DNA of 64,000 nt from contig NZ_CANLSL010000006.1 in the NCBI RefSeq assembly GCF_947493735.1, positions 1 through 64,000 of the forward strand, read 5' to 3'. This stretch comes from an uncultured Acinetobacter sp. Its GTDB lineage: Bacteria; Pseudomonadota; Gammaproteobacteria; Pseudomonadales; Moraxellaceae. Position numbers and translations under genes: made by a program. Shown here one piece after another: positions 40,131 through 61,513 of this stretch; within the stretch, counting starts at the first letter, position 1; every line of letters starts with the position of its first letter. The notes under the pieces were generated by a model, which was not told the origin of the DNA, searched no databases, and worked only from the letters and a program-made list of their open reading frames with translations.

Positions 40131-40745
40131 ATGCTATCGACTTATGTACATGCTTTTGCATTATTTTTTACACTGATTAACCCTTTTCTAATGAGTATCT
40201 ATATGATCGGCATGATCAGAAACTCAGAGGCAAAAGTCTTTAATAAAGCACTGATACAAGGGAGTTTAATTGCCTTTTTAGTGTTTATATTTTTTGCTTG
40301 GGGTGGCGAAGCGATTTCTAATCATTAACTCAACGTACGCTTTGAATCCTTTCAAATATTCGGTGGAATCATTTTTCTAGTCATTGGTTATCGCTACGTT
40401 TTTCACGGTGCAGATACCATCGGTGAGATACGTGGCGCACCTGAGCACCTTGCAGGCACTGTAGCAATGCCATTTATGATTGGACCGGGTACGATCAGTG
40501 CAGCGGTCGTGACAGGCATCAATCATGGCATGTTGGCGACCGTTATGGTGGTCGCTTTAACACTTGGAATTACTTGTATTATTTTGATCTTAATGAAATA
40601 TTTTCATGATAATTTGCGCTATAGCCATGCCAAATATATTGATCATTATTTTGATATCGTTGGGCGACTGTCCGCACTACTTATAGCCACGATTGCTATT
40701 GATATCATTGTTACAGGGATTATGGGAGTAATTGCAAATAACTAA
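40131..40745 (+). pseudogene. MarC-family membrane protein with in-frame stop
   Basis: The frame encodes a MarC-type protein of about 204 residues (FTLINPFLMSIYMIGM near the start; ESFQIFGGIIFLVIGYRY and AMPFMIGPGTISAAVVTGI later). A TAA interrupts it at 40326-40328, after residue 65, with the frame otherwise intact on both sides. A single base change (for example from CAA) would explain it. Its final TAA lies inside the degenerate last repeat of the CRISPR array. It is probably a recent pseudogene; a sequencing error is possible. Confidence 0.82.
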
Positions 40746-43700
40746 GCCATCTGTGCGATGGTTAACTTCGTTCAGACTATGAAGCCATTAAACAACAATT
40801 TCTAAGCCATCTGTGCGATGGAGAACACGAATCAATTTATGAGTTTTATTTCGATGCTTTTCTAAGCCATCTGTGCGATGGGGAACTCTGCTGTATTTGA
40901 AGATGTTTGTGATGTATTTTTCTAAGCCATCTGTGCGATGGGGAACGAAGAGAAAAAGCTTGAATATGCTTACCAAATTTTCTAAGCCATCTGTGCGATG
41001 GGGAACATAACTTTCGTTTGTTTTTTTTGGTGCTTTGCTTTCTAAGCCATCTGTGCGATGGGGAACGCGTGGCAAAAAGCGCATACATACTTCTAGGTTT
41101 TCTAAGCCATCTGTGCGATGGGGAACTCAAATGATGCAAATGCCAAGCGAGTTGTCAATTTCTAAGCCATCTGTGCGATGGGGAACGTATCTCATGTGAT
41201 ACTGCTTTGAGTTTGAAATTTCTAAGCCATCTGTGCGATGGGGAACTAACCCCTAAGCACCATTTGCGGAACATCGCATTTCTAAGCCATCTGTGCGATG
41301 GGGAACATCAAATTTTCTACTCAATTTTTACACAGCAATTTCTAAGCCATCTGTGCGATGGGGAACTTATAGGTGACTTCACCCAGCAAAGCGTCCGTTT
41401 TCTAAGCCATCTGTGCGATGGGGAACTTGTCTTGCGTAATGCGGCGTCAATCTGCTACTTTCTAAGCCATCTGTGCGATGGGGAACGTGTTAATTGACAC
41501 ATTGAGATTTTTTTGGATTTTCTAAGCCATCTGTGCGATGGGGAACAAATACAAGATTTAATCGCAACCGAGGAGGCATTTCTAAGCCATCTGTGCGATG
41601 GGGAACCAGCTGTAATTGTATTAATCAGCACAATGCTATTTCTAAGCCATCTGTGCGATGGGGAACACTGACCATTGCGATAGACTTCCGATCCTACATT
41701 TCTAAGCCATCTGTGCGATGGGGAACGACATCGCCCAAAACAGGTAGATTATACCGATTTTCTAAGCCATCTGTGCGATGGGGAACACGGTGGCATCGCT
41801 ACGATCTGTGCGATCGGTTTTCTAAGCCATCTGTGCGATGGGGAACCATTGCGTACACGCCAATGGACTGATCAGAATTTTCTAAGCCATCTGTGCGATG
41901 GGGAACATGCTGATCGCAAAACAACGGACTTGCTGACTTTTCTAAGCCATCTGTGCGATGGGGAACATATGCGTGGCGTAAACAAAGTAATTTTAATTTT
42001 TCTAAGCCATCTGTGCGATGGGGAACTTTCCGAAATGAAAATGCTGGGCGAAGTTGATTTTCTAAGCCATCTGTGCGATGGGGAACGATTCTGAAATGGC
42101 TAGGCTCGCTCGGCGCATTTTCTAAGCCATCTGTGCGATGGGGAACTAGGCTCGGTGATGTCTGCACTACTCAAGTAATTTCTAAGCCATCTGTGCGATG
42201 GGGAACCGTACCACGACAACCATTGGGTTGGTTTGCTTTTTCTAAGCCATCTGTGCGATGGGGAACTTTAGAATGGTTTGGCGCAGTATATGGCGATCTT
42301 TCTAAGCCATCTGTGCGATGGGGAACGACGGTCGCATCAAGACGCTTAATGCTGAAAATTTCTAAGCCATCTGTGCGATGGGGAACTGAATATCAAGGGA
42401 ATAGCATTTATGCAATGTTTTCTAAGCCATCTGTGCGATGGGGAACAAAAAGTGCGGTTTGGGCGTGACACTGTGGAATTTCTAAGCCATCTGTGCGATG
42501 GGGAACGCTTAGCAATTTTCACATATAACTGGATTCAATTTCTAAGCCATCTGTGCGATGGGGAACAGCAAATACGTGTCGCATCTGTTTTTTTAAATTT
42601 TCTAAGCCATCTGTGCGATGGGGAACGTGAGAAGTGGCAATAGGTTCGGATTGAACATTTTCTAAGCCATCTGTGCGATGGGGAACATTTGTTGCTTGTC
42701 TGCAATTAAGTTTCGATCTTTCTAAGCCATCTGTGCGATGGGGAACAAATTATATCTTGCTTTACTGATTGTTGTTGTTTTCTAAGCCATCTGTGCGATG
42801 GGGAACCAAAAACAGTAAAGGGGCTTTTACGGAAGCTTTTTCTAAGCCATCTGTGCGATGGGGAACTCAGAATTAAGCACAATCTTTGTGGGTGGCAATT
42901 TCTAAGCCATCTGTGCGATGGGGAACTCTCTATTGCTTTGAGTGATTTGCCTGTTCTTTTTCTAAGCCATCTGTGCGATGGGGAACTTACAGTCCCTTTT
43001 TCGTCTAACTATACAAGCTTTCTAAGCCATCTGTGCGATGGGGAACATACCGTGCCGATAAACGGCTTGGAAATAAAATTTCTAAGCCATCTGTGCGATG
43101 GGGAACGCCGTCAATGAAGTTCGGGCAGTCTTTGCATTTTCTAAGCCATCTGTGCGATGGGGAACAGACTTGCGAGTATCTTTTACATCATCACCGTTTT
43201 CTAAGCCATCTGTGCGATGGGGAACGAAAAGCCTCAAACTTACAATGCGCAAGCAGATTTCTAAGCCATCTGTGCGATGGGGAACCAGGTACTGATTTAA
43301 ACCACAAGCCACTTGCATTTCTAAGCCATCTGTGCGATGGGGAACATATTCTCACCTCAAGCCCTTGAGAAGTTTAATTTCTAAGCCATCTGTGCGATGG
43401 GGAACCAGGAGTAAGCGATATGTGCGGTGGATTTGTTTTTCTAAGCCATCTGTGCGATGGGGAACGGTCATAGCGAATCATCGTCAATGATGGTTAATTT
43501 CTAAGCCATCTGTGCGATGGGGAACCCTTACCGATGTTTTGCTGTGTATCTTTAAGTTTTCTAAGCCATCTGTGCGATGGGGAACCTTAAAAATTAATTG
43601 CCCTTGTCGCCACGGTGTTTCTAAGCCATCTGTGCGATGGGGAACTTTTTATCTATGACTTCATCATCATAGGCAATTTTCTAAGCCATCTGTGCGATGG

Positions 43701-45384
43701 GGAACAGGTTGAGCATGTGGACTTTAAGAACAAACAATTTCTAAGCCATCTGTGCGATGGGGAACTCTGGGCGATATCGTCACCAAGCCGATTCGCTTTT
43801 CTAAGCCATCTGTGCGATGGGGAACGTCACACTGCTACAGCTTGCGACTTGGGTATTTTTCTAAGCCATCTGTGCGATGGGGAACCGCACCACGACAACC
43901 ATTGGGTTTGCTTGCTTTTTCTAAGCCATCTGTGCGATGGGGAACAACACAAGATCAGCTTACGTCGATCAATCAGTTTTCTAAGCCATCTGTGCGATGG
44001 GGAACAACAAAAAGCCCTCGCAGAGTGGAATCAACAATTTCTAAGCCATCTGTGCGATGGGGAACAGTTTGTTGTTTAGAGTGATTCGCAACCATTTTTC
44101 TAAGCCATCTGTGCGATGGGGAACAACAAAAAGCCCCCAACACGGCTAGGTAATCATTTCTAAGCCATCTGTGCGATGGGGAACTCGCCTCGGCACGTAA
44201 CCAGTTGGCATTTTTTTTTCTAAGCCATCTGTGCGATGGGGAACTAATCCGACGGAAAAACAACTTGCGCATTATTTTTCTAAGCCATCTGTGCGATGGG
44301 GAACGTCAAAACAGCGCATGGGTGATGACCGCTATTTTTCTAAGCCATCTGTGCGATGGGGAACGAACGATCGTGCCATCGCTAAACTGCATTTTTTTTC
44401 TAAGCCATCTGTGCGATGGGGAACAGCTTGCGCCTGATCTCGAAGCTGATGCGGGTTTTCTAAGCCATCTGTGCGATGGGGAACTGGCAGCACTCAAGGC
44501 GATCACAAAAGCCTTTTTTCTAAGCCATCTGTGCGATGGGGAACAAGACGCCAAACCGCTGACACGATCGCTTACATTTCTAAGCCATCTGTGCGATGGG
44601 GAACGTGTTGATCGCTACATTGAGATTTTTTTGGATTTTCTAAGCCATCTGTGCGATGGGGAACCATAAATATCAACAATATTTTCACGATTAATTTTTC
44701 TAAGCCATCTGTGCGATGGGGAACTCTTCGCCGTCGTACATTGCGACTGCGACATTTTTCTAAGCCATCTGTGCGATGGGGAACACTCATAGACTGCATC
44801 GCTGTCTTCATCTGCGTTTCTAAGCCATCTGTGCGATGGGGAACTGCAGTAACTCGCATCAATATCATCAACAACGTTTCTAAGCCATCTGTGCGATGGG
44901 GAACTTCGAAATTGACACTCTAAGATTTAGGGTGCTTTTCTAAGCCATCTGTGCGATGGGGAACGACTATGCGAACAACGCTCTATCTATCACACTTTTC
45001 TAAGCCATCTGTGCGATGGGGAACAAGAAGTTGCACGTGAATTTGCGCAACAAGAATTTCTAAGCCATCTGTGCGATGGGGAACTGAGCGCAAAGCATTA
45101 CAAACTACGACGGATGTTTCTAAGCCATCTGTGCGATGGGGAACTTGAAACTGCTGAGCCGTCTCTTGCGCAAGTATTTCTAAGCCATCTGTGCGATGGG
45201 GAACAGATTTCAGAAGTGAAATCACAACTCCAAAACTTTCTAAGCCATCTGTGCGATGGGGAACGGTAAAGTAGAGTGTTTGAAGCGTGCCGAGGTTTTC
45301 TAAGCCATCTGTGCGATGGGGAACTGCCACTCCTGCGGCGACCCTTAAAGTCATTTTTTCTAAGCCATCTGTGCGATGGGGAAC
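40739..45384 (-). CRISPR. Type I-F CRISPR array, 78 repeats and 77 spacers
   Basis: A 28-bp repeat recurs every 60 bp with 32-bp spacers; two spacers, ending at 43137 and 44096, are 31 bp. In crRNA orientation (minus strand) the repeat starts GTTCCC, has the Cas6f hairpin CCATC-GCACA-GATGG, and ends with the handle CTTAGAAA. The copies are nearly all identical. The last repeats (low coordinates) decay: one change at 40799-40826 and four at 40739-40766. The leader is therefore at the high-coordinate end, next to cas6f. All cas genes point the same way. Confidence 0.98.
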
Positions 45385-47235: not shown

Positions 47236-48210
47236 TTATACAAATTCAAAAGGATCACTTTGGCGTACCAAATACAACGACTTTTCAGCATCATGTTCGT
47301 ACCGCCAAAATGCTGTAGAGATTTGATCATTTGCTTTAAGGTGATATGGATACAGCCATTTTCCTAAGCCATAGATGGCTTCAACATATTGGCTTGGATA
47401 TTCTGGATTTCGCACATTTTGCATGACACCAGCATCAAAGCACTCTGAAATACCCTGATAGCCAATAGGCATCGGCACAAGCCAACCGTAGCCAGTTTTG
47501 GCAGAAGTTGCAGACCATTTCACGTCGCCATTTTCTGTGGCTTCGGGAATATGGTGAATGGTACAGACATCAAGTAATGCATCTAAAGCCGTGGCATCAG
47601 GATGTTTGTCTTGGAATGTTTCAATGATTTGAGAGAATTCATCTTGTGCGTCCATCAAAACAAAAGCAGGCATCAACGATGGAATCACATCATCGAGCTG
47701 ATGACTTTGAAAAAATTCGACAGGTTTGTATTTTGAGAGACCATGTACACTGCCACCTGCGATGCGTTGTTGCTGAATCCATTGGGTGGTTTGATTGACT
47801 AATAGGTGACTTTGTTCATCACTCAGATGTGCTGTGCCAAGCACTTCAACCACAAAAGACATGGTGAGATGACATTTGCCTTCTTCGATAATGGAAGCTG
47901 TCTTACCATCTTTTTTGATCGGGTTGCGTGTTTGGTTAAAGGTATAGTTACTATATTTGCTTGAACGATAGACTTGTGGCTGACAATCGTGGCAAGCGAG
48001 TAGAACACCTCCCAGTGAAAATCCTTTAAATGCTTCGTGTACCTGTAACTTGCGAGACATGGCATGGAATGCACCTAAAAAACCCGTAATCGCAGGGAAG
48101 CCATAGGTGATCGGACTGGAGATACTATTTGCACCTGTAATCTGTACTTGGCGAAATAGTAAATAGCCAACAGATTGTGTTAACTCATTTTGATGTTGTT
48201 GATCTTGCAT
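47236..48210 (-). CDS. csy2: Csy2 (Cas5f), Cascade subunit
   Basis: A 324-residue subunit that, with Csy1, binds the 5' handle of the crRNA. Recognised from SSPITYGFPAITGFLGAFHA (about 36-55) and GYGWLVPMPIGYQGIS near the C-terminus, both typical of Csy2. Its start overlaps the csy1 stop by one base. Confidence 0.95.
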   Translation of the reverse strand: MQDQQHQNELTQSVGYLLFRQVQITGANSISSPITYGFPAITGFLGAFHAMSRKLQVHEAFKGFSLGGVLLACHDCQPQVYRSSKYSNYTFNQTRNPIKKDGKTASIIEEGKCHLTMSFVVEVLGTAHLSDEQSHLLVNQTTQWIQQQRIAGGSVHGLSKYKPVEFFQSHQLDDVIPSLMPAFVLMDAQDEFSQIIETFQDKHPDATALDALLDVCTIHHIPEATENGDVKWSATSAKTGYGWLVPMPIGYQGISECFDAGVMQNVRNPEYPSQYVEAIYGLGKWLYPYHLKANDQISTAFWRYEHDAEKSLYLVRQSDPFEFV

Positions 48211-49565
48211 TAGAAAATCCCTCGACCTTCGCGTTCGTATTGTTTTTTCATGGCTTCGATTTCACGCTTCCACTCTTTGTGCTCTGGATAAGCAATATCC
48301 GAAGATTGTTTAGGAAATTCAGCTTTAAGCAAAGCATTTAACCAATCGGCAAAGTGATTGATAATGATTTCGTGCCAGTCTTCTTTTGTTTGTCCAAGCG
48401 CAAATTCCTGTTCATCGGGCAGGGCAGCACGCTTTGGATCAAGCCAGTATTTGTAAGGCATGTCGAGTGCAAAATCTTTTGACCAACCTGCAGGTAATGT
48501 GGTGCGAATGCTATGTACTAAAGCAAAAAGAATATGTAGTACGTTATCAATTGCTTCTTTACGTGTATCACGCACATCGACCGTATTCTTAATTTTTTTC
48601 ATCACACCAAAAATATCTTGAATGGCATCTCGTGCTGGATAAATCAGTGCATTGTTATCAAAAATCGAACGCTTAAACTTAGACAACCTAAAATTAAAAT
48701 CCCGTCCGATCATCGGTGGTAGTGACGGTAATAAATAATTGCGACCACCTTGTTTACTCATCAGTTGGCTGACACCTTGAGGGTTACTTCCCCCAATTTT
48801 AGTAACCGCAATATTGAGCATATCTGGGTATGCTTCTACTGTGCTACTTTTGTTGTACCGATTCTTTCTAGCCTGAGAATATTTGTCAGAGTATTTAGAA
48901 TAATTAACGTGTTCATAAATATAATGGGTAAAAGATGATGGATAGAGAGGTATTAAACACGTATATGAGTCTTTATCTACATGCCACCAAAGAGTTTGTT
49001 TATTCAATTCACTGGATTTAGGTTCAGTAGGTTGGGCTAATAATAAATTGCGAAAAATATCGAAATAAGTTTTAGAAATTTTTTCGTTATTAGAGAATGC
49101 TGAATGAAAGCTGGCTTCATTTTCGATTATATAATGCTTAACTTTTCTTCCATCATTTACATCAAAATCAAAAAGGGAAAAAAGAGGTAGGGCTGCTGCA
49201 TTCCCACTCGCATCTAATATAGGTTCTCTCAGACTTTGATGACCAACAATCCCGTGTGGAAGTAGGTTGTTGGTGGAGAAATTTATATTATCTCCTCTAG
49301 AACTAGAATGTATACCTTTAGAAATATGAGTTCCAAATCCAATTTGTTTAGTCATCCAATTCGCAGCTCTTTCCATCCACGGCTCTAGTGCATATTTTTC
49401 TCTAATTTCGGCTATTTTAAGTGTTAATTCAGAAAACTTTTCTGCATCGCCGTCTTCTTTTGCTTTAGCAAGTTGCTTTTGTTCAGTTTCCGACTTTTTC
49501 TCAAACTGACCTTGTAAAAAGCCGAGAACAGCAGATTTTGCTTGTTGTGGTGTAATATCGTTCAT
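48210..49565 (-). CDS. csy1: Csy1 (Cas8f), PAM-recognising Cascade subunit
   Basis: Large subunit of the type I-F surveillance complex, 451 residues, which reads the PAM. It has the typical blocks THISKGIHSSSRGDNINF, NLLPHGIVGHQSLREP and GGSNPQGVSQLMSKQGGRNY. It is the first gene of the csy operon. A GAGGAAA ribosome-binding site precedes the ATG. Its upstream region holds a palindrome and the mini-CRISPR match site listed separately, so it is probably the controlled gene. Confidence 0.95.
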   Translation of the reverse strand: MNDITPQQAKSAVLGFLQGQFEKKSETEQKQLAKAKEDGDAEKFSELTLKIAEIREKYALEPWMERAANWMTKQIGFGTHISKGIHSSSRGDNINFSTNNLLPHGIVGHQSLREPILDASGNAAALPLFSLFDFDVNDGRKVKHYIIENEASFHSAFSNNEKISKTYFDIFRNLLLAQPTEPKSSELNKQTLWWHVDKDSYTCLIPLYPSSFTHYIYEHVNYSKYSDKYSQARKNRYNKSSTVEAYPDMLNIAVTKIGGSNPQGVSQLMSKQGGRNYLLPSLPPMIGRDFNFRLSKFKRSIFDNNALIYPARDAIQDIFGVMKKIKNTVDVRDTRKEAIDNVLHILFALVHSIRTTLPAGWSKDFALDMPYKYWLDPKRAALPDEQEFALGQTKEDWHEIIINHFADWLNALLKAEFPKQSSDIAYPEHKEWKREIEAMKKQYEREGRGIF

Positions 49566-49634
49566 TTTGCTATTTCCTCATTTTCTTAATGAACTCATTA
49601 AGGACATTGAATCATAAAATAATATTAAAAACAA

Positions 49635-49655
49635 CCGTAGTATTCTAAAGATTTC
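49635..49655 (+). promoter_or_regulatory. Candidate Cascade target site upstream of csy1 (CC PAM plus guide match)
   Basis: CC at 49635-49636 is followed by GTAGTATTCTAAAGATTTC (49637-49655). The sequence after the handle of the mini-CRISPR at 49683-49752 is GTAGTCTTCTAAATATTTC, identical at 17 of 19 positions. Mismatches are at positions 6 and 14. On the minus strand the site contains TAGAAT, and a TATGAT lies at plus 49611-49616. Either could be the -10 of csy1, so binding here should block the csy operon. Confidence 0.7.
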
Positions 49656-49682
49656 AAGATGACTTAAAAAAATATATAATTC

Positions 49683-49752
49683 GTTCTCTATCACGTAGAT
49701 AGCTTAGAAAGTAGTCTTCTAAATATTTCCCACCGCACAGGTGGCTTCGTTA
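49683..49752 (+). ncRNA. Mini-CRISPR guide RNA (CreR/CreA-like): two degenerate repeats and a 14-nt spacer
   Basis: Pseudo-repeat 1 (49683-49710, 28 nt) keeps GTTC, a 5-bp hairpin CTATC-ACGTA-GATAG and the exact array handle CTTAGAAA. Pseudo-repeat 2 (49725-49752) keeps CCACC-GCACA-GGTGG. Both hairpins carry paired changes relative to the array stem CCATC/GATGG. The 14-nt pseudo-spacer is GTAGTCTTCTAAAT. TATAAT at 49675-49680 lies just upstream on the same strand, and a hairpin terminator follows at 49754. Processed by Cas6f, it would give a short guide pointing to the csy1 upstream region. Confidence 0.75.
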
Positions 49753-49753
49753 A

Positions 49754-49786
49754 AGGCATGAGGTCAGACTTCATGCCTTTCTCCTT
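49754..49786 (+). terminator. Hairpin ending the mini-CRISPR transcript
   Basis: Stem AGGCATGAGG/CTTCATGCCT (one mismatch), followed by the pyrimidine run TTCTCCTT. It lies directly after pseudo-repeat 2, and just after the cas3 stop on the other strand. Confidence 0.6.
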
Positions 49787-49797
49787 AGTGTAAAAAC

Positions 49798-56912: not shown

Positions 56913-56980
56913 AATCTTTGTATCAATTAAATCATTTCATTCATAATAATAATTTGCGTATGCTATGGCAATAGACAATA

Positions 56981-57246
56981 GGGTCTGTTGACATTTCAAC
57001 CATGCATTGCGTTATTGGCTAAAATCACATAAACGAGGCATGAAATGCAGGGAATGGTCACTCCCTTACCAAGTTTCATAACGAAGTTTATGGCAATTTT
57101 AGCCATAACCTTTCAGGACAAGGATGCTTTTTGACGCTACGTTGTTAGAAATGAGTTATTTAGAGTGACTAAACTTCCTCATTCCTTCCTAGTATCGTCT
57201 AAAAAGCATCCATTGTCGCAAGCATCTGTGAAATATCAACAGACCC
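56981..57246 (+). mobile_element. MITE copy 2 (266 bp, TA target duplication)
   Basis: The ends GGGTCTGTTGACATTTC and GAAATATCAACAGACCC are flanked by TA. It is non-coding and very similar to copy 3 and, inverted, to copy 1. It occupies most of the 359-bp region between the LysR gene and the acyl-CoA dehydrogenase gene, ending 25 bp before the latter's start codon. Confidence 0.88.
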
Positions 57247-57271
57247 TACAAATTCGCAAAGGATTTCCACC

Positions 57272-58507
57272 ATGTATGAGCTTTCTGATCGCGCCAAAGA
57301 CTACATCCAACGCACAGAACAATTTATCAAAGATGAAATCGAGCCAGTCGAGGCGGATTTTTGGCATGAAGTACATCGTCTGAATGTCGATGGCGATTGG
57401 ACGAAATGGCAGTGGCCAGCGATGCTTGAAACCTTAAAAGCCAAAGCCAAAACCGCAGGACTTTGGAATATGTTCTTGCCTGATGCGACTTTGGGTACGG
57501 GGCTGTCGGTACAGGAATATGCACACATCGCAGAGCGCACAGGACGCAGTTTGATTGCGCCAACCGTATTTAACTGTAATGCGCCTGATACAGGCAATAT
57601 GGAAGTGCTCTGGCGTTACGGCAGTGAAGCACAACAGGAACAATGGCTCAAGCCTTTACTCGCAGGGGAAATTCGTTCGGTATTCTGTATGACTGAGCCT
57701 GATGTAGCATCGAGTGATGCCACCAATATGCAAGCCACTGCGGTGATCGAAGGGGACGAAATCGTACTCAATGGTCGCAAATGGTGGTCGTCAGGTCTGG
57801 GCGATCCAAATGCCAAAGTCATCATCTTTATGGCGCATACCCCTGATGCATCCAAAGATCGCCATCATCAACACTCCATGGTCTTGGTGCCCGTAAATAC
57901 GCAAGGTGTAAAGATCGAACGCATGTTACCTGTGTTTGGTGACTACGATGCACCGCATGGTCATGGTGAAGTGAGCTTTGACAATGTACGTGTCCCTGTG
58001 GCGAATTTTATCGGCGGTGCAGGGCAAGGTTTTGAGATTGCGCAAGGTCGTCTAGGACCAGGACGTATTCATCACTGCATGCGTTGTATCGGTGCGGCGG
58101 AAAAGTCTTTGGAGCTGATGATTGATCGTGGTATGTCACGTAAAGCCTTTGGTAAAGAATTATTAAAGTTGGGTGGTAATCTAGAGCGTGTTGCAGAAGC
58201 TCGAGTTGCGATTGATCAAGCCCGATTGCTGACCTTATACGCAGCCTATAAGATGGATAAAATGGGCAATATGGCAGCCCTCACAGAAATCTCTGCGATC
58301 AAAGTGGTTGCGCCAACGGTACTGCAAAATGTGGTGGATATGGCGATTCAAATTCATGGTGGTGCTGGCGTATCCAAAGATACACCGCTGACCGCATTCT
58401 ATGCGCAGGCACGTGCACTGCGTCTTGCCGATGGACCAGATGAAGTGCATAAAGGCATGATTGCCAAACTGGAATTGATGAAACGAGGTTATGCGTCTCG
58501 CCGCTAA
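57272..58507 (+). CDS. Acyl-CoA dehydrogenase
   Basis: FAD enzyme of the ACAD family, 411 residues. FAD/substrate blocks are RSVFCMTEPDVASSDATNMQ (about 132-151) and GRKWWSSGLGDPNAK. The C-terminal block is IQIHGGAGVSKDTPLTAFYA. This branch (ACAD10/11-like) often pairs with a kinase-like phosphotransferase, which indeed follows 80 bp downstream. It may act on 4-hydroxy or other unusual acyl-CoAs; that is inference. Confidence 0.93.
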   Translation: MYELSDRAKDYIQRTEQFIKDEIEPVEADFWHEVHRLNVDGDWTKWQWPAMLETLKAKAKTAGLWNMFLPDATLGTGLSVQEYAHIAERTGRSLIAPTVFNCNAPDTGNMEVLWRYGSEAQQEQWLKPLLAGEIRSVFCMTEPDVASSDATNMQATAVIEGDEIVLNGRKWWSSGLGDPNAKVIIFMAHTPDASKDRHHQHSMVLVPVNTQGVKIERMLPVFGDYDAPHGHGEVSFDNVRVPVANFIGGAGQGFEIAQGRLGPGRIHHCMRCIGAAEKSLELMIDRGMSRKAFGKELLKLGGNLERVAEARVAIDQARLLTLYAAYKMDKMGNMAALTEISAIKVVAPTVLQNVVDMAIQIHGGAGVSKDTPLTAFYAQARALRLADGPDEVHKGMIAKLELMKRGYASRR

Positions 58508-61225: not shown

Positions 61226-61236
61226 ATCAATTACTA

Positions 61237-61501
61237 GGGTCTGTTGACATTTCAACCATGCATTGCGTTATAGGCTAAATCACATAAACGATGCATGAAA
61301 CGCAGAGAATGGTCACTCCCTTGTCAAGTTTCATAACGAAGTTTATGGCAATTTTAGCCATAACCCTTCGGGACAAGGATGTTTTTTGACGCTACGTTGT
61401 TATGAATGAATCATTTAGAATGACTAAATTTCTTCATTCATTCCTAGTATCGCCTAAAAAACATCCGTTGTCGCAAGCATCTGTGAAATGTCAACAGACC
61501 C
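61237..61501 (+). mobile_element. MITE copy 3 (265 bp, TA target duplication)
   Basis: The ends GGGTCTGTTGACATTTC and GAAATGTCAACAGACCC are a perfect 17-bp inverted repeat, flanked by TA. Same orientation as copy 2. It is the best-preserved copy by its ends. Confidence 0.9.
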
Positions 61502-61513
61502 TAATCTAAGCAA

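What the first reader, a model, noticed from the sequence alone, without database searches (positions are those of the whole stretch)
49683..49752. A hidden mini-CRISPR between cas3 and csy1: probable Cas-regulating guide RNA of the type I-F system
Two 28-nt degenerate repeats lie on the plus strand, opposite to the cas genes, bracketing a 14-nt spacer. The handle CTTAGAAA of the first is identical to the array. Both hairpins differ from the array in stem bases but with compensating changes (CTATC/GATAG and CCACC/GGTGG against CCATC/GATGG), so RNA structure has been selected. A TATAAT lies upstream and a hairpin follows. CreR/CreA guides (short guides that repress promoters without cleavage) are known for some CRISPR types. 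From memory, a CreTA toxin-antitoxin pair was described beside an Acinetobacter I-F locus, so this may be a relative or a pure cas autorepressor. Annotation programs normally miss it.
Basis: partly seen in the sequence, partly recalled or inferred. Interest (0 to 1): 0.93.

Follow-up and report, generated by a model that had tools for sequence, protein, structure and literature searches.

The report
Mini-CRISPR guide silencing its cas genes
Between two genes of an Acinetobacter CRISPR defence system lies a tiny one-guide CRISPR whose guide matches, next to a correct targeting signal, the stretch just in front of the defence genes themselves; it would likely let the system turn itself down, and the same self-matching arrangement, in different letters, sits at this spot in dozens of related systems.

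Summary
Two degenerate I-F repeats (49683-49710, 49725-49752) bracket a 14-nt spacer, antisense to cas. None of 20,000 random gaps reached 17 (maximum 15).

The arrangement recurs in 44 of 55 csy1 loci (window included) with a cas3-csy1 gap of at least 100 bp or undetermined, each guide matching its own local site. With no PAM required, 32 of 35 matches follow CC; in CC-flanked matches mismatches pile up at positions 6, 12 and 18, the Cascade pattern. Hence a working guide, not a relic.

In the window and 22 other loci the site lies within 95 bp of csy1 and none of the 23 has a creT-like mini-ORF; in the published CreTA locus of LoGeW2-3 it lies 203 bp away behind the creT ORF. Best reading: a type I-F CreR-like autorepressor of the csy operon. 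One review passage lists CreR for I-B, I-E and V-A. Transcription, processing and repression are untested.

The parts
49683..49710 (+). psi-R1, degenerate I-F repeat; stem CTATC/GATAG, intact 5' handle CTTAGAAA (49703-49710)
   Evidence: 22/28 to the array repeat; letters
49711..49724 (+). 14-nt guide (spacer); pairing would run on 5 nt into psi-R2, 19 nt in all
49725..49752 (+). psi-R2, degenerate repeat; stem CCACC/GGTGG intact, 3' handle degenerate (CTTCGTTA)
   Evidence: 21/28 to the array repeat; folds as a 5-bp hairpin
49703..49744 (+). predicted mature 42-nt CreR-like RNA after Cas6f cleavage behind each stem
   Evidence: inference from the Cas6f cut site (recalled); letters
49635..49655 (+). 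target: CC PAM (49635-49636) and 19-nt protospacer matching the guide at 17/19 (mismatches 6 and 14)
49606..49634 (-). predicted csy promoter: -35 TTGTTT (49634-49629) abutting the PAM, 17 nt, extended -10 TG-A-TTCAAT (49611-49606)
   Evidence: best-scoring placement in the window by a narrow margin (5.4 vs 5.2); same offset 0 in 11 of 23 proximal loci; not found by the consensus scan
49652..49680 (+). predicted promoter of the guide: TTTCAA, 17 nt, TATAAT (49675-49680) ending 2 nt before psi-R1; its -35 overlaps the target
   Evidence: -10 ends 1-3 nt before psi-R1 in 18 of 23 proximal loci
49752..49780 (+). 13-bp hairpin behind psi-R2, possible terminator shared with the convergent cas3 end
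   Evidence: fold of 49683-49790, z -4.2; T tract weak, not called
48210..49565 (-). csy1, first gene of the csy1-csy2-csy3-csy4 operon that would be repressed
   Evidence: TIGR02564, 334 bits
49798..54206 (-). cas3f and cas1f, upstream genes
   Evidence: TIGR02562 and TIGR03637
45517..48210 (-). csy2, csy3, csy4 (cas6f)
   Evidence: TIGR02565, TIGR02566, TIGR02563
40739..45384 (-). main I-F array, 76 exact repeats plus 2 variants at the end away from csy4

Best explanation
The cas3-csy1 gap encodes a one-guide mini-CRISPR whose guide matches a CC-flanked site just upstream of csy1, and its RNA would likely load into the system's own Csy complex and repress the csy operon without cutting (a CreR-like autorepressor). 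Proposed steps: (1) a promoter ending at psi-R1 drives a leaderless antisense RNA (predicted); (2) Csy4/Cas6f cuts behind both hairpins, giving a 42-nt guide RNA with an intact 5' handle and a psi-R2 3' hairpin (inferred); (3) the 14-nt spacer, 18 nt shorter than the recalled 32-nt standard, would assemble a shorter Csy complex, lacking about three Csy3 subunits at 6 nt each (inferred); (4) the complex binds the PAM and protospacer (sequence match shown, binding untested), where the PAM abuts the predicted csy -35, and blocks RNA polymerase (inferred); (5) the short, partial match would not license Cas3 destruction of the chromosome (inferred by analogy with the published I-F CreA). Ordinary crRNAs or anti-CRISPRs that tie up the Csy complex would relieve repression (by analogy with published CreR). 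The target also overlaps the guide's own predicted -35, so the guide may throttle itself too (weaker inference).
For: Window: 17/19 CC-anchored match; 0 of 20,000 first-order Markov versions of the gap reach 17, maximum 15, once; only one such site in the 2.6-Mb genome besides the guide itself at up to 2 mismatches, reversed-pattern control 0. Relatives: mini-CRISPR plus own target in 44 of 55 loci (window included) with a cas3-csy1 gap of >=100 bp or undetermined; a 45th (L083) with a relaxed handle. Counting all 20 positions, 34 of 60 loci with a guide candidate match their own CC-flanked site at >=15/20, against 0 of 595 swapped comparisons (>=14: 38 of 60 against 4 of 595). With no PAM required, 32 of 35 matches of >=15/20 follow CC. 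In the 38 CC-flanked matches mismatches number 0 at positions 1-5, 27 at 6, 28 at 12, 23 at 18 (all). Handle-to-second-stem lengths cluster at 37 minus multiples of 6: 27 of 43 exactly, 39 of 43 within one nt; over 29 guide families 0 of 100,000 random draws were as periodic. Both stems vary between C-G and T-A pairs. Best csy -35 directly behind the PAM in 11 of 23 proximal loci; guide -10 within 1-3 nt of psi-R1 in 18 of 23. An SD-preceded mini-ORF between target and csy1 in 0 of 23 proximal loci, while a creT-type ORF appears in 7 of 21 distal ones.
Against: No RNA, processing, binding or repression data. Neither promoter is found by the plain consensus scan; in the window alone a rival csy promoter scores 5.2 against 5.4, and in 12 of 23 proximal loci the best csy promoter is not at offset 0. 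11 of 55 gapped loci lacked the element (10) and 8 of 19 in the second set. L007 and L013 hold repeat-like hairpins without a passing target. The 0 of 47 short-gap loci are partly trivial, since a short gap has no room. The search required handle and stem, so psi-R1 pairing is partly built in, and the second stem was picked by a score. Loci are not independent (L052/L053 and L042/L056 are near copies). DNA of the closest homologues (P0001-P0005, 66-97%) was not available: metagenome scans were capped at 0.
Confidence: 0.82

Rival explanations
1. It is a CreTA module: the guide (CreA) represses a hidden small toxin RNA made from the 71 bp in front of csy1, and csy repression is incidental.
For: Published I-F CreTA sits in the same gap with an antisense guide, a CC target and, in WCHA45, a 20-nt guide (PMC10097628). 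A few very short ATG-stop frames without a Shine-Dalgarno sequence can be read by eye in the 71 bp.
Against: No SD-preceded mini-ORF in the window or in any of the 23 proximal loci, while the same scan finds a creT-type ORF in 7 of 21 distal loci, among them LoGeW2-3. The predicted csy start leaves about 34 nt of leader (from, inference). In L005, L010, L011 and L032 the target is 18-24 bp from csy1, leaving no room.
Confidence: 0.09
2. It is a decaying relic of a CRISPR array or a degraded creA with no present function.
For: Both repeats are degenerate; 10-11 of 55 gapped loci lack the element; L007 and L013 look like remnants.
Against: The parts a mature guide needs (psi-R1 handle, both stems, PAM, positions 1-5) are the preserved ones here; guides track their own targets in dozens of loci with different letters, with mismatches at 6, 12 and 18.
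Confidence: 0.05
3. The guide acts mainly as a minimal second array that can take up spacers, not as a repressor.
For: L033 and L044 carry an extra 32-nt spacer and a second psi-repeat in the mini-CRISPR.
Against: Does not explain the recurring match to a local CC-flanked site upstream of csy1; the extra spacer was seen in 2 loci, noticed by eye in a listing of 24 loci.
Confidence: 0.04

Closest known systems
CreR, cas-regulating RNA of types I-B, I-E and V-A (known here through passages of PMC13131331, PMC12948488 and PMC12737573; the original paper was not seen)
   Same: mini-CRISPR encoding a crRNA-like RNA with partial complementarity to a cas promoter; no toxin
   Different: subtype I-F; antisense element inside the cas3-csy1 gap; here repression, crRNA sensing and Acr response are untested
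I-F CreTA of Acinetobacter WCHA45, LoGeW2-3 and ANC3789 (PMC10097628)
   Same: same gap, antisense guide, two degenerate repeats, CC PAM, partial match mismatched at position 6; guide shortened to 20 nt in WCHA45
   Different: there the target lies at creT with a 33-bp toxin ORF, 203 bp from csy1 in LoGeW2-3; here no such ORF and 71 bp; Csy1 26.3% identical to LoGeW2-3
SpyCas9 autorepression (a passage of PMC13131331 says SpyCas9 auto-represses; the long-form tracrRNA detail is recalled)
   Same: effector represses its own genes, relieved by anti-CRISPRs
   Different: class 2, tracrRNA-based, no mini-CRISPR

Membership tests
CreR (cas-regulating RNA) | crRNA-like RNA gene with two degenerate repeats beside cas genes | tested here: met
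   gene anatomy only; the RNA itself is not shown
CreR (cas-regulating RNA) | partial complementarity, with correct PAM, to the cas promoter | tested here: met
   17/19 with CC PAM 71 bp upstream of csy1; the promoter itself is a prediction
CreR (cas-regulating RNA) | no toxin gene between guide target and cas | tested here: met
   SD-preceded mini-ORF in 0 of 23 proximal loci; the scan detects a creT-type ORF in 7 of 21 distal loci
CreR (cas-regulating RNA) | effector-dependent repression of cas, relieved by crRNAs or Acr | not testable with these tools
   needs reporter assays
CreTA (I-F) | creT toxin RNA downstream of the guide's target | tested here: not met
   only 71 bp to csy1. A toxin RNA without an SD-preceded ORF is not excluded
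CreTA (I-F) | antisense two-repeat guide in the cas3-csy1 gap with CC target | tested here: met
   and PMC10097628 section 6
Type I-F CRISPR-Cas | cas1f, cas3f, csy1-4 and I-F repeat array | tested here: met

The most novel reading that the evidence does not exclude
One ancient gene slot between cas3 and csy1 of type I-F systems holds a self-guided switch found across gamma- and beta-proteobacteria. Its guides are cut short in 6-nt steps so that a shorter Csy complex binds but does not destroy. It is repeatedly re-aimed: at the csy promoter it is an autorepressor, at creT it is a toxin guard. In the window one target overlaps the flanks of the predicted csy and guide promoters, making a two-way switch that reads out free Csy complex.
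Probability: 0.5. Interest if true: 0.82.

Novelty: new variant of a known kind. Interest (0 to 1): 0.72.

Why it matters
It would extend RNA-guided autorepression of CRISPR systems to subtype I-F and show that the slot known for the CreTA toxin guard holds, in this Csy1 lineage, mostly a plain self-regulator (18 proximal against 4 distal of 30 rows). It gives natural, testable examples of Csy guides that would bind without cutting, with lengths set in Csy3-sized steps and a 6-nt mismatch pattern. It also predicts how I-F systems respond to anti-CRISPRs and to long arrays, such as the one here with 76 exact repeats, whose crRNAs would compete for Csy complex.

Tried and rejected
Plain sigma-70/terminator scan: nothing found, so promoters rest on the placement, whose score gives a bonus for a TG-extended -10. 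First named-genome scan with the single Csy1: 11 pattern hits, no relative; the alignment scan then gave 43 loci. Viral contigs: none of 76 pattern hits encodes a relative. Plasmids: 16 records, three of them fetched. Second targets: the window has no other CC-flanked match of 13 or more of 19 bases; the only further genome hit within 3 mismatches is C11:49304, not pursued. Relaxed search in the 11 gapped loci without a call recovered one (L083). The extra spacers of L033 and L044 were not searched for protospacers. No structure prediction was made. Of PMC10097628 I read the outline, sections 6, 8, 9 and 15 and passages; of PMC13131331, PMC12948488, PMC12737573 and PMC10013973 passages only; the rest as search listings.

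Full report
What is there. The window holds a complete type I-F locus on the minus strand: cas1f and cas3f (54206-49798), a 232-bp gap, csy1 to csy4 (49565-45517), and a main array with 76 exact repeats and two variants. The genome is placed in the same genus as the one holding the 179,399-bp contig of Acinetobacter sp. LoGeW2-3, so it is an Acinetobacter (inference). In the gap, on the plus strand, lie psi-R1 (49683-49710), a 14-nt spacer and psi-R2 (49725-49752), 22/28 and 21/28 identical to the array repeat. They are the only such stretches in the window outside the array.

The missed target. The guide GTAGTCTTCTAAAT plus the first 5 nt of psi-R2 matches CC-GTAGTATTCTAAAGATTTC at 49635-49655 with mismatches only at positions 6 and 14. 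In 20,000 first-order Markov versions of the gap the best CC-anchored match was 15 of 19, once. In the whole genome the pattern, with positions 6 and 14 left open, finds this site, the guide itself and one 3-mismatch site. CC is the I-F PAM (PMC10097628).

Comparative test. I scanned the region upstream of csy1 in 102 loci (window included) of the family and order for a hairpin plus CTTAGAAA-like handle and a CC-flanked copy of the following 20 nt. 44 of 55 loci with a cas3-csy1 gap of at least 100 bp, or an undetermined gap, have both; 0 of 47 with a shorter gap do, which is partly for want of room. Gap lengths come from a simple open-frame rule. One more locus appears with a relaxed handle. 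In 42 of the 44 the guide is antisense to csy; in L081 and L082 it is not. Since positions 6, 12 and 18 were ignored in that scoring, I repeated it counting all positions over 500 bp. Own matches of 15 or more of 20 occur in 34 of 60 loci with a guide candidate, against 0 of 595 swapped guide-locus pairs (14 or more: 38 of 60 against 4 of 595). Mismatches in these 38 are 0 at positions 1-5, 27 at 6, 28 at 12 and 23 at 18; the next highest are 18 at position 20 and 9 each at 16 and 19. Without requiring a PAM, 32 of 35 matches of 15 or more follow CC. That Cascade flips out every sixth base is recalled knowledge. A second set of named loci gave the element in 11 of 19 gapped or undetermined loci against 0 of 12 short-gap ones, among them Advenella, Pelistega, Gallibacterium, Pasteurella canis, Pseudomonas stutzeri and Endozoicomonas; the first two are beta-proteobacteria by recalled taxonomy. 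Six of these 11 guides lie on the csy strand. Two of the 11 (L126, L133) repeat guide and target of L083 and L082 and are probably the same genomes.

Guide length. The distance from handle to second stem is 19 in the window and 25 in 21 of 44 loci. Against the recalled canonical 37 (32-nt spacer plus 5), 27 of 43 loci differ by an exact multiple of six and 39 of 43 within one nt (L009 left out, its second hairpin is doubtful). Over 29 guide families 0 of 100,000 draws with uniform remainders were as periodic, and period 6 scored highest of periods 4-9; 11 of the 29 share length 25, so common descent may contribute. One Csy3 subunit covers 6 nt (recalled), so these guides look trimmed by whole subunits; the window's would lack three.

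CreR or CreTA. Targets fall into 23 loci within 95 bp of csy1 (window 71 bp) and 21 further away. In the proximal class an SD-preceded mini-ORF lies between target and csy1 in 0 of 23. In the distal class the 33-bp frame MFSTHLVRRV of LoGeW2-3 or a close variant appears in 7 of 21; the other 14 show unrelated short frames or none. LoGeW2-3 is one of the three published I-F CreTA loci. On a Csy1 tree of 83 rows the window lies in a clade (support 100/100) of 30 rows with 18 proximal, 4 distal and 8 without a called element, most from other genera of the family; all other Acinetobacter rows of the tree fall outside it. Its closest rows are L032 and L036. Closest named homologues are Suttonella sp. 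R2A3 (58%) and Psychrobacter (54-55%). The locus was therefore probably acquired from outside the genus; the donor is open (inference).

Promoters. In 11 of 23 proximal loci, the window among them, the best-scoring csy promoter starts its -35 directly behind the PAM, with a 17-nt spacer and a TG-extended -10. In the window it is TTGTTT-17-TTCAAT and wins only narrowly (5.4 against 5.2). The guide's -10 ends 1-3 nt before psi-R1 in 18 of 23 loci; in the window it is TATAAT at 49675-49680. The guide's predicted -35 (49652-49657) overlaps the target, so one bound complex could silence both directions.

Structure. The predicted RNA folds with a psi-R2 hairpin and a 13-bp hairpin behind it (z -4.2 for 49683-49790; z -1.74 for the mini-CRISPR alone). 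Across 44 psi-R1 and 41 distinct psi-R2 versions every stem position occurs with at least two Watson-Crick pair types, some as single cases; the search required at least 4 of 5 pairs.

Judgement. Shown: repeats, guide, PAM-flanked self-match, recurrence with co-varying letters, 6-nt mismatch and length pattern, absence of a creT-type ORF. Against: position 14, needed in WCHA45 CreA, is mismatched here. Predicted: promoters, Cas6f processing, loading, repression, relief by crRNAs or anti-CRISPRs. It would work like CreR. Membership is met for the sequence-level features and untested for function. Review passages place CreR in I-B, I-E and V-A (PMC13131331) or in 'Type I and Type V-A' generally (PMC12737573). 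The original paper was not seen, so an I-F prediction in it cannot be excluded.

Noticed in passing
   Followed up: partly
L047 3185-3850: A HigB-like toxin gene (PF05015) with an HTH partner sits inside the cas3-csy1 gap, between cas3 and the guide; L046 and L048 have gaps of similar size, not looked into.
   Followed up: partly
L044 3080-3632: A BrnT toxin gene (PF04365) and a second frame without a Pfam hit lie between the guide and its target in the gap.
   Followed up: partly
L005, L010, L011: Acinetobacter I-F loci with gaps of about 200 bp, no creT-type ORF and the target 18-24 bp from csy1, among distal-target relatives on the tree: possible CreTA-to-CreR conversions.
   Followed up: partly
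L007 and L013: Acinetobacter loci with repeat-like hairpins in the gap but no passing target: possible decayed guides.
   Followed up: no
L128 1008-2267: In Rodentibacter the 1.2-kb stretch in front of csy1 holds frames of repeated peptides on both strands that look like repeat-spacer arrays.
   Followed up: no
window 56979-57248 and 61235-61503: A repeat of about 270 bp (45 bp at 98%, 227 bp at 91%), 4.26 kb apart, the first copy just in front of the ORF at 57272; possibly a small mobile element.
   Followed up: no
window 40739-45384: Very long I-F array: 76 exact repeats and two variants at the end away from csy4.
   Followed up: no
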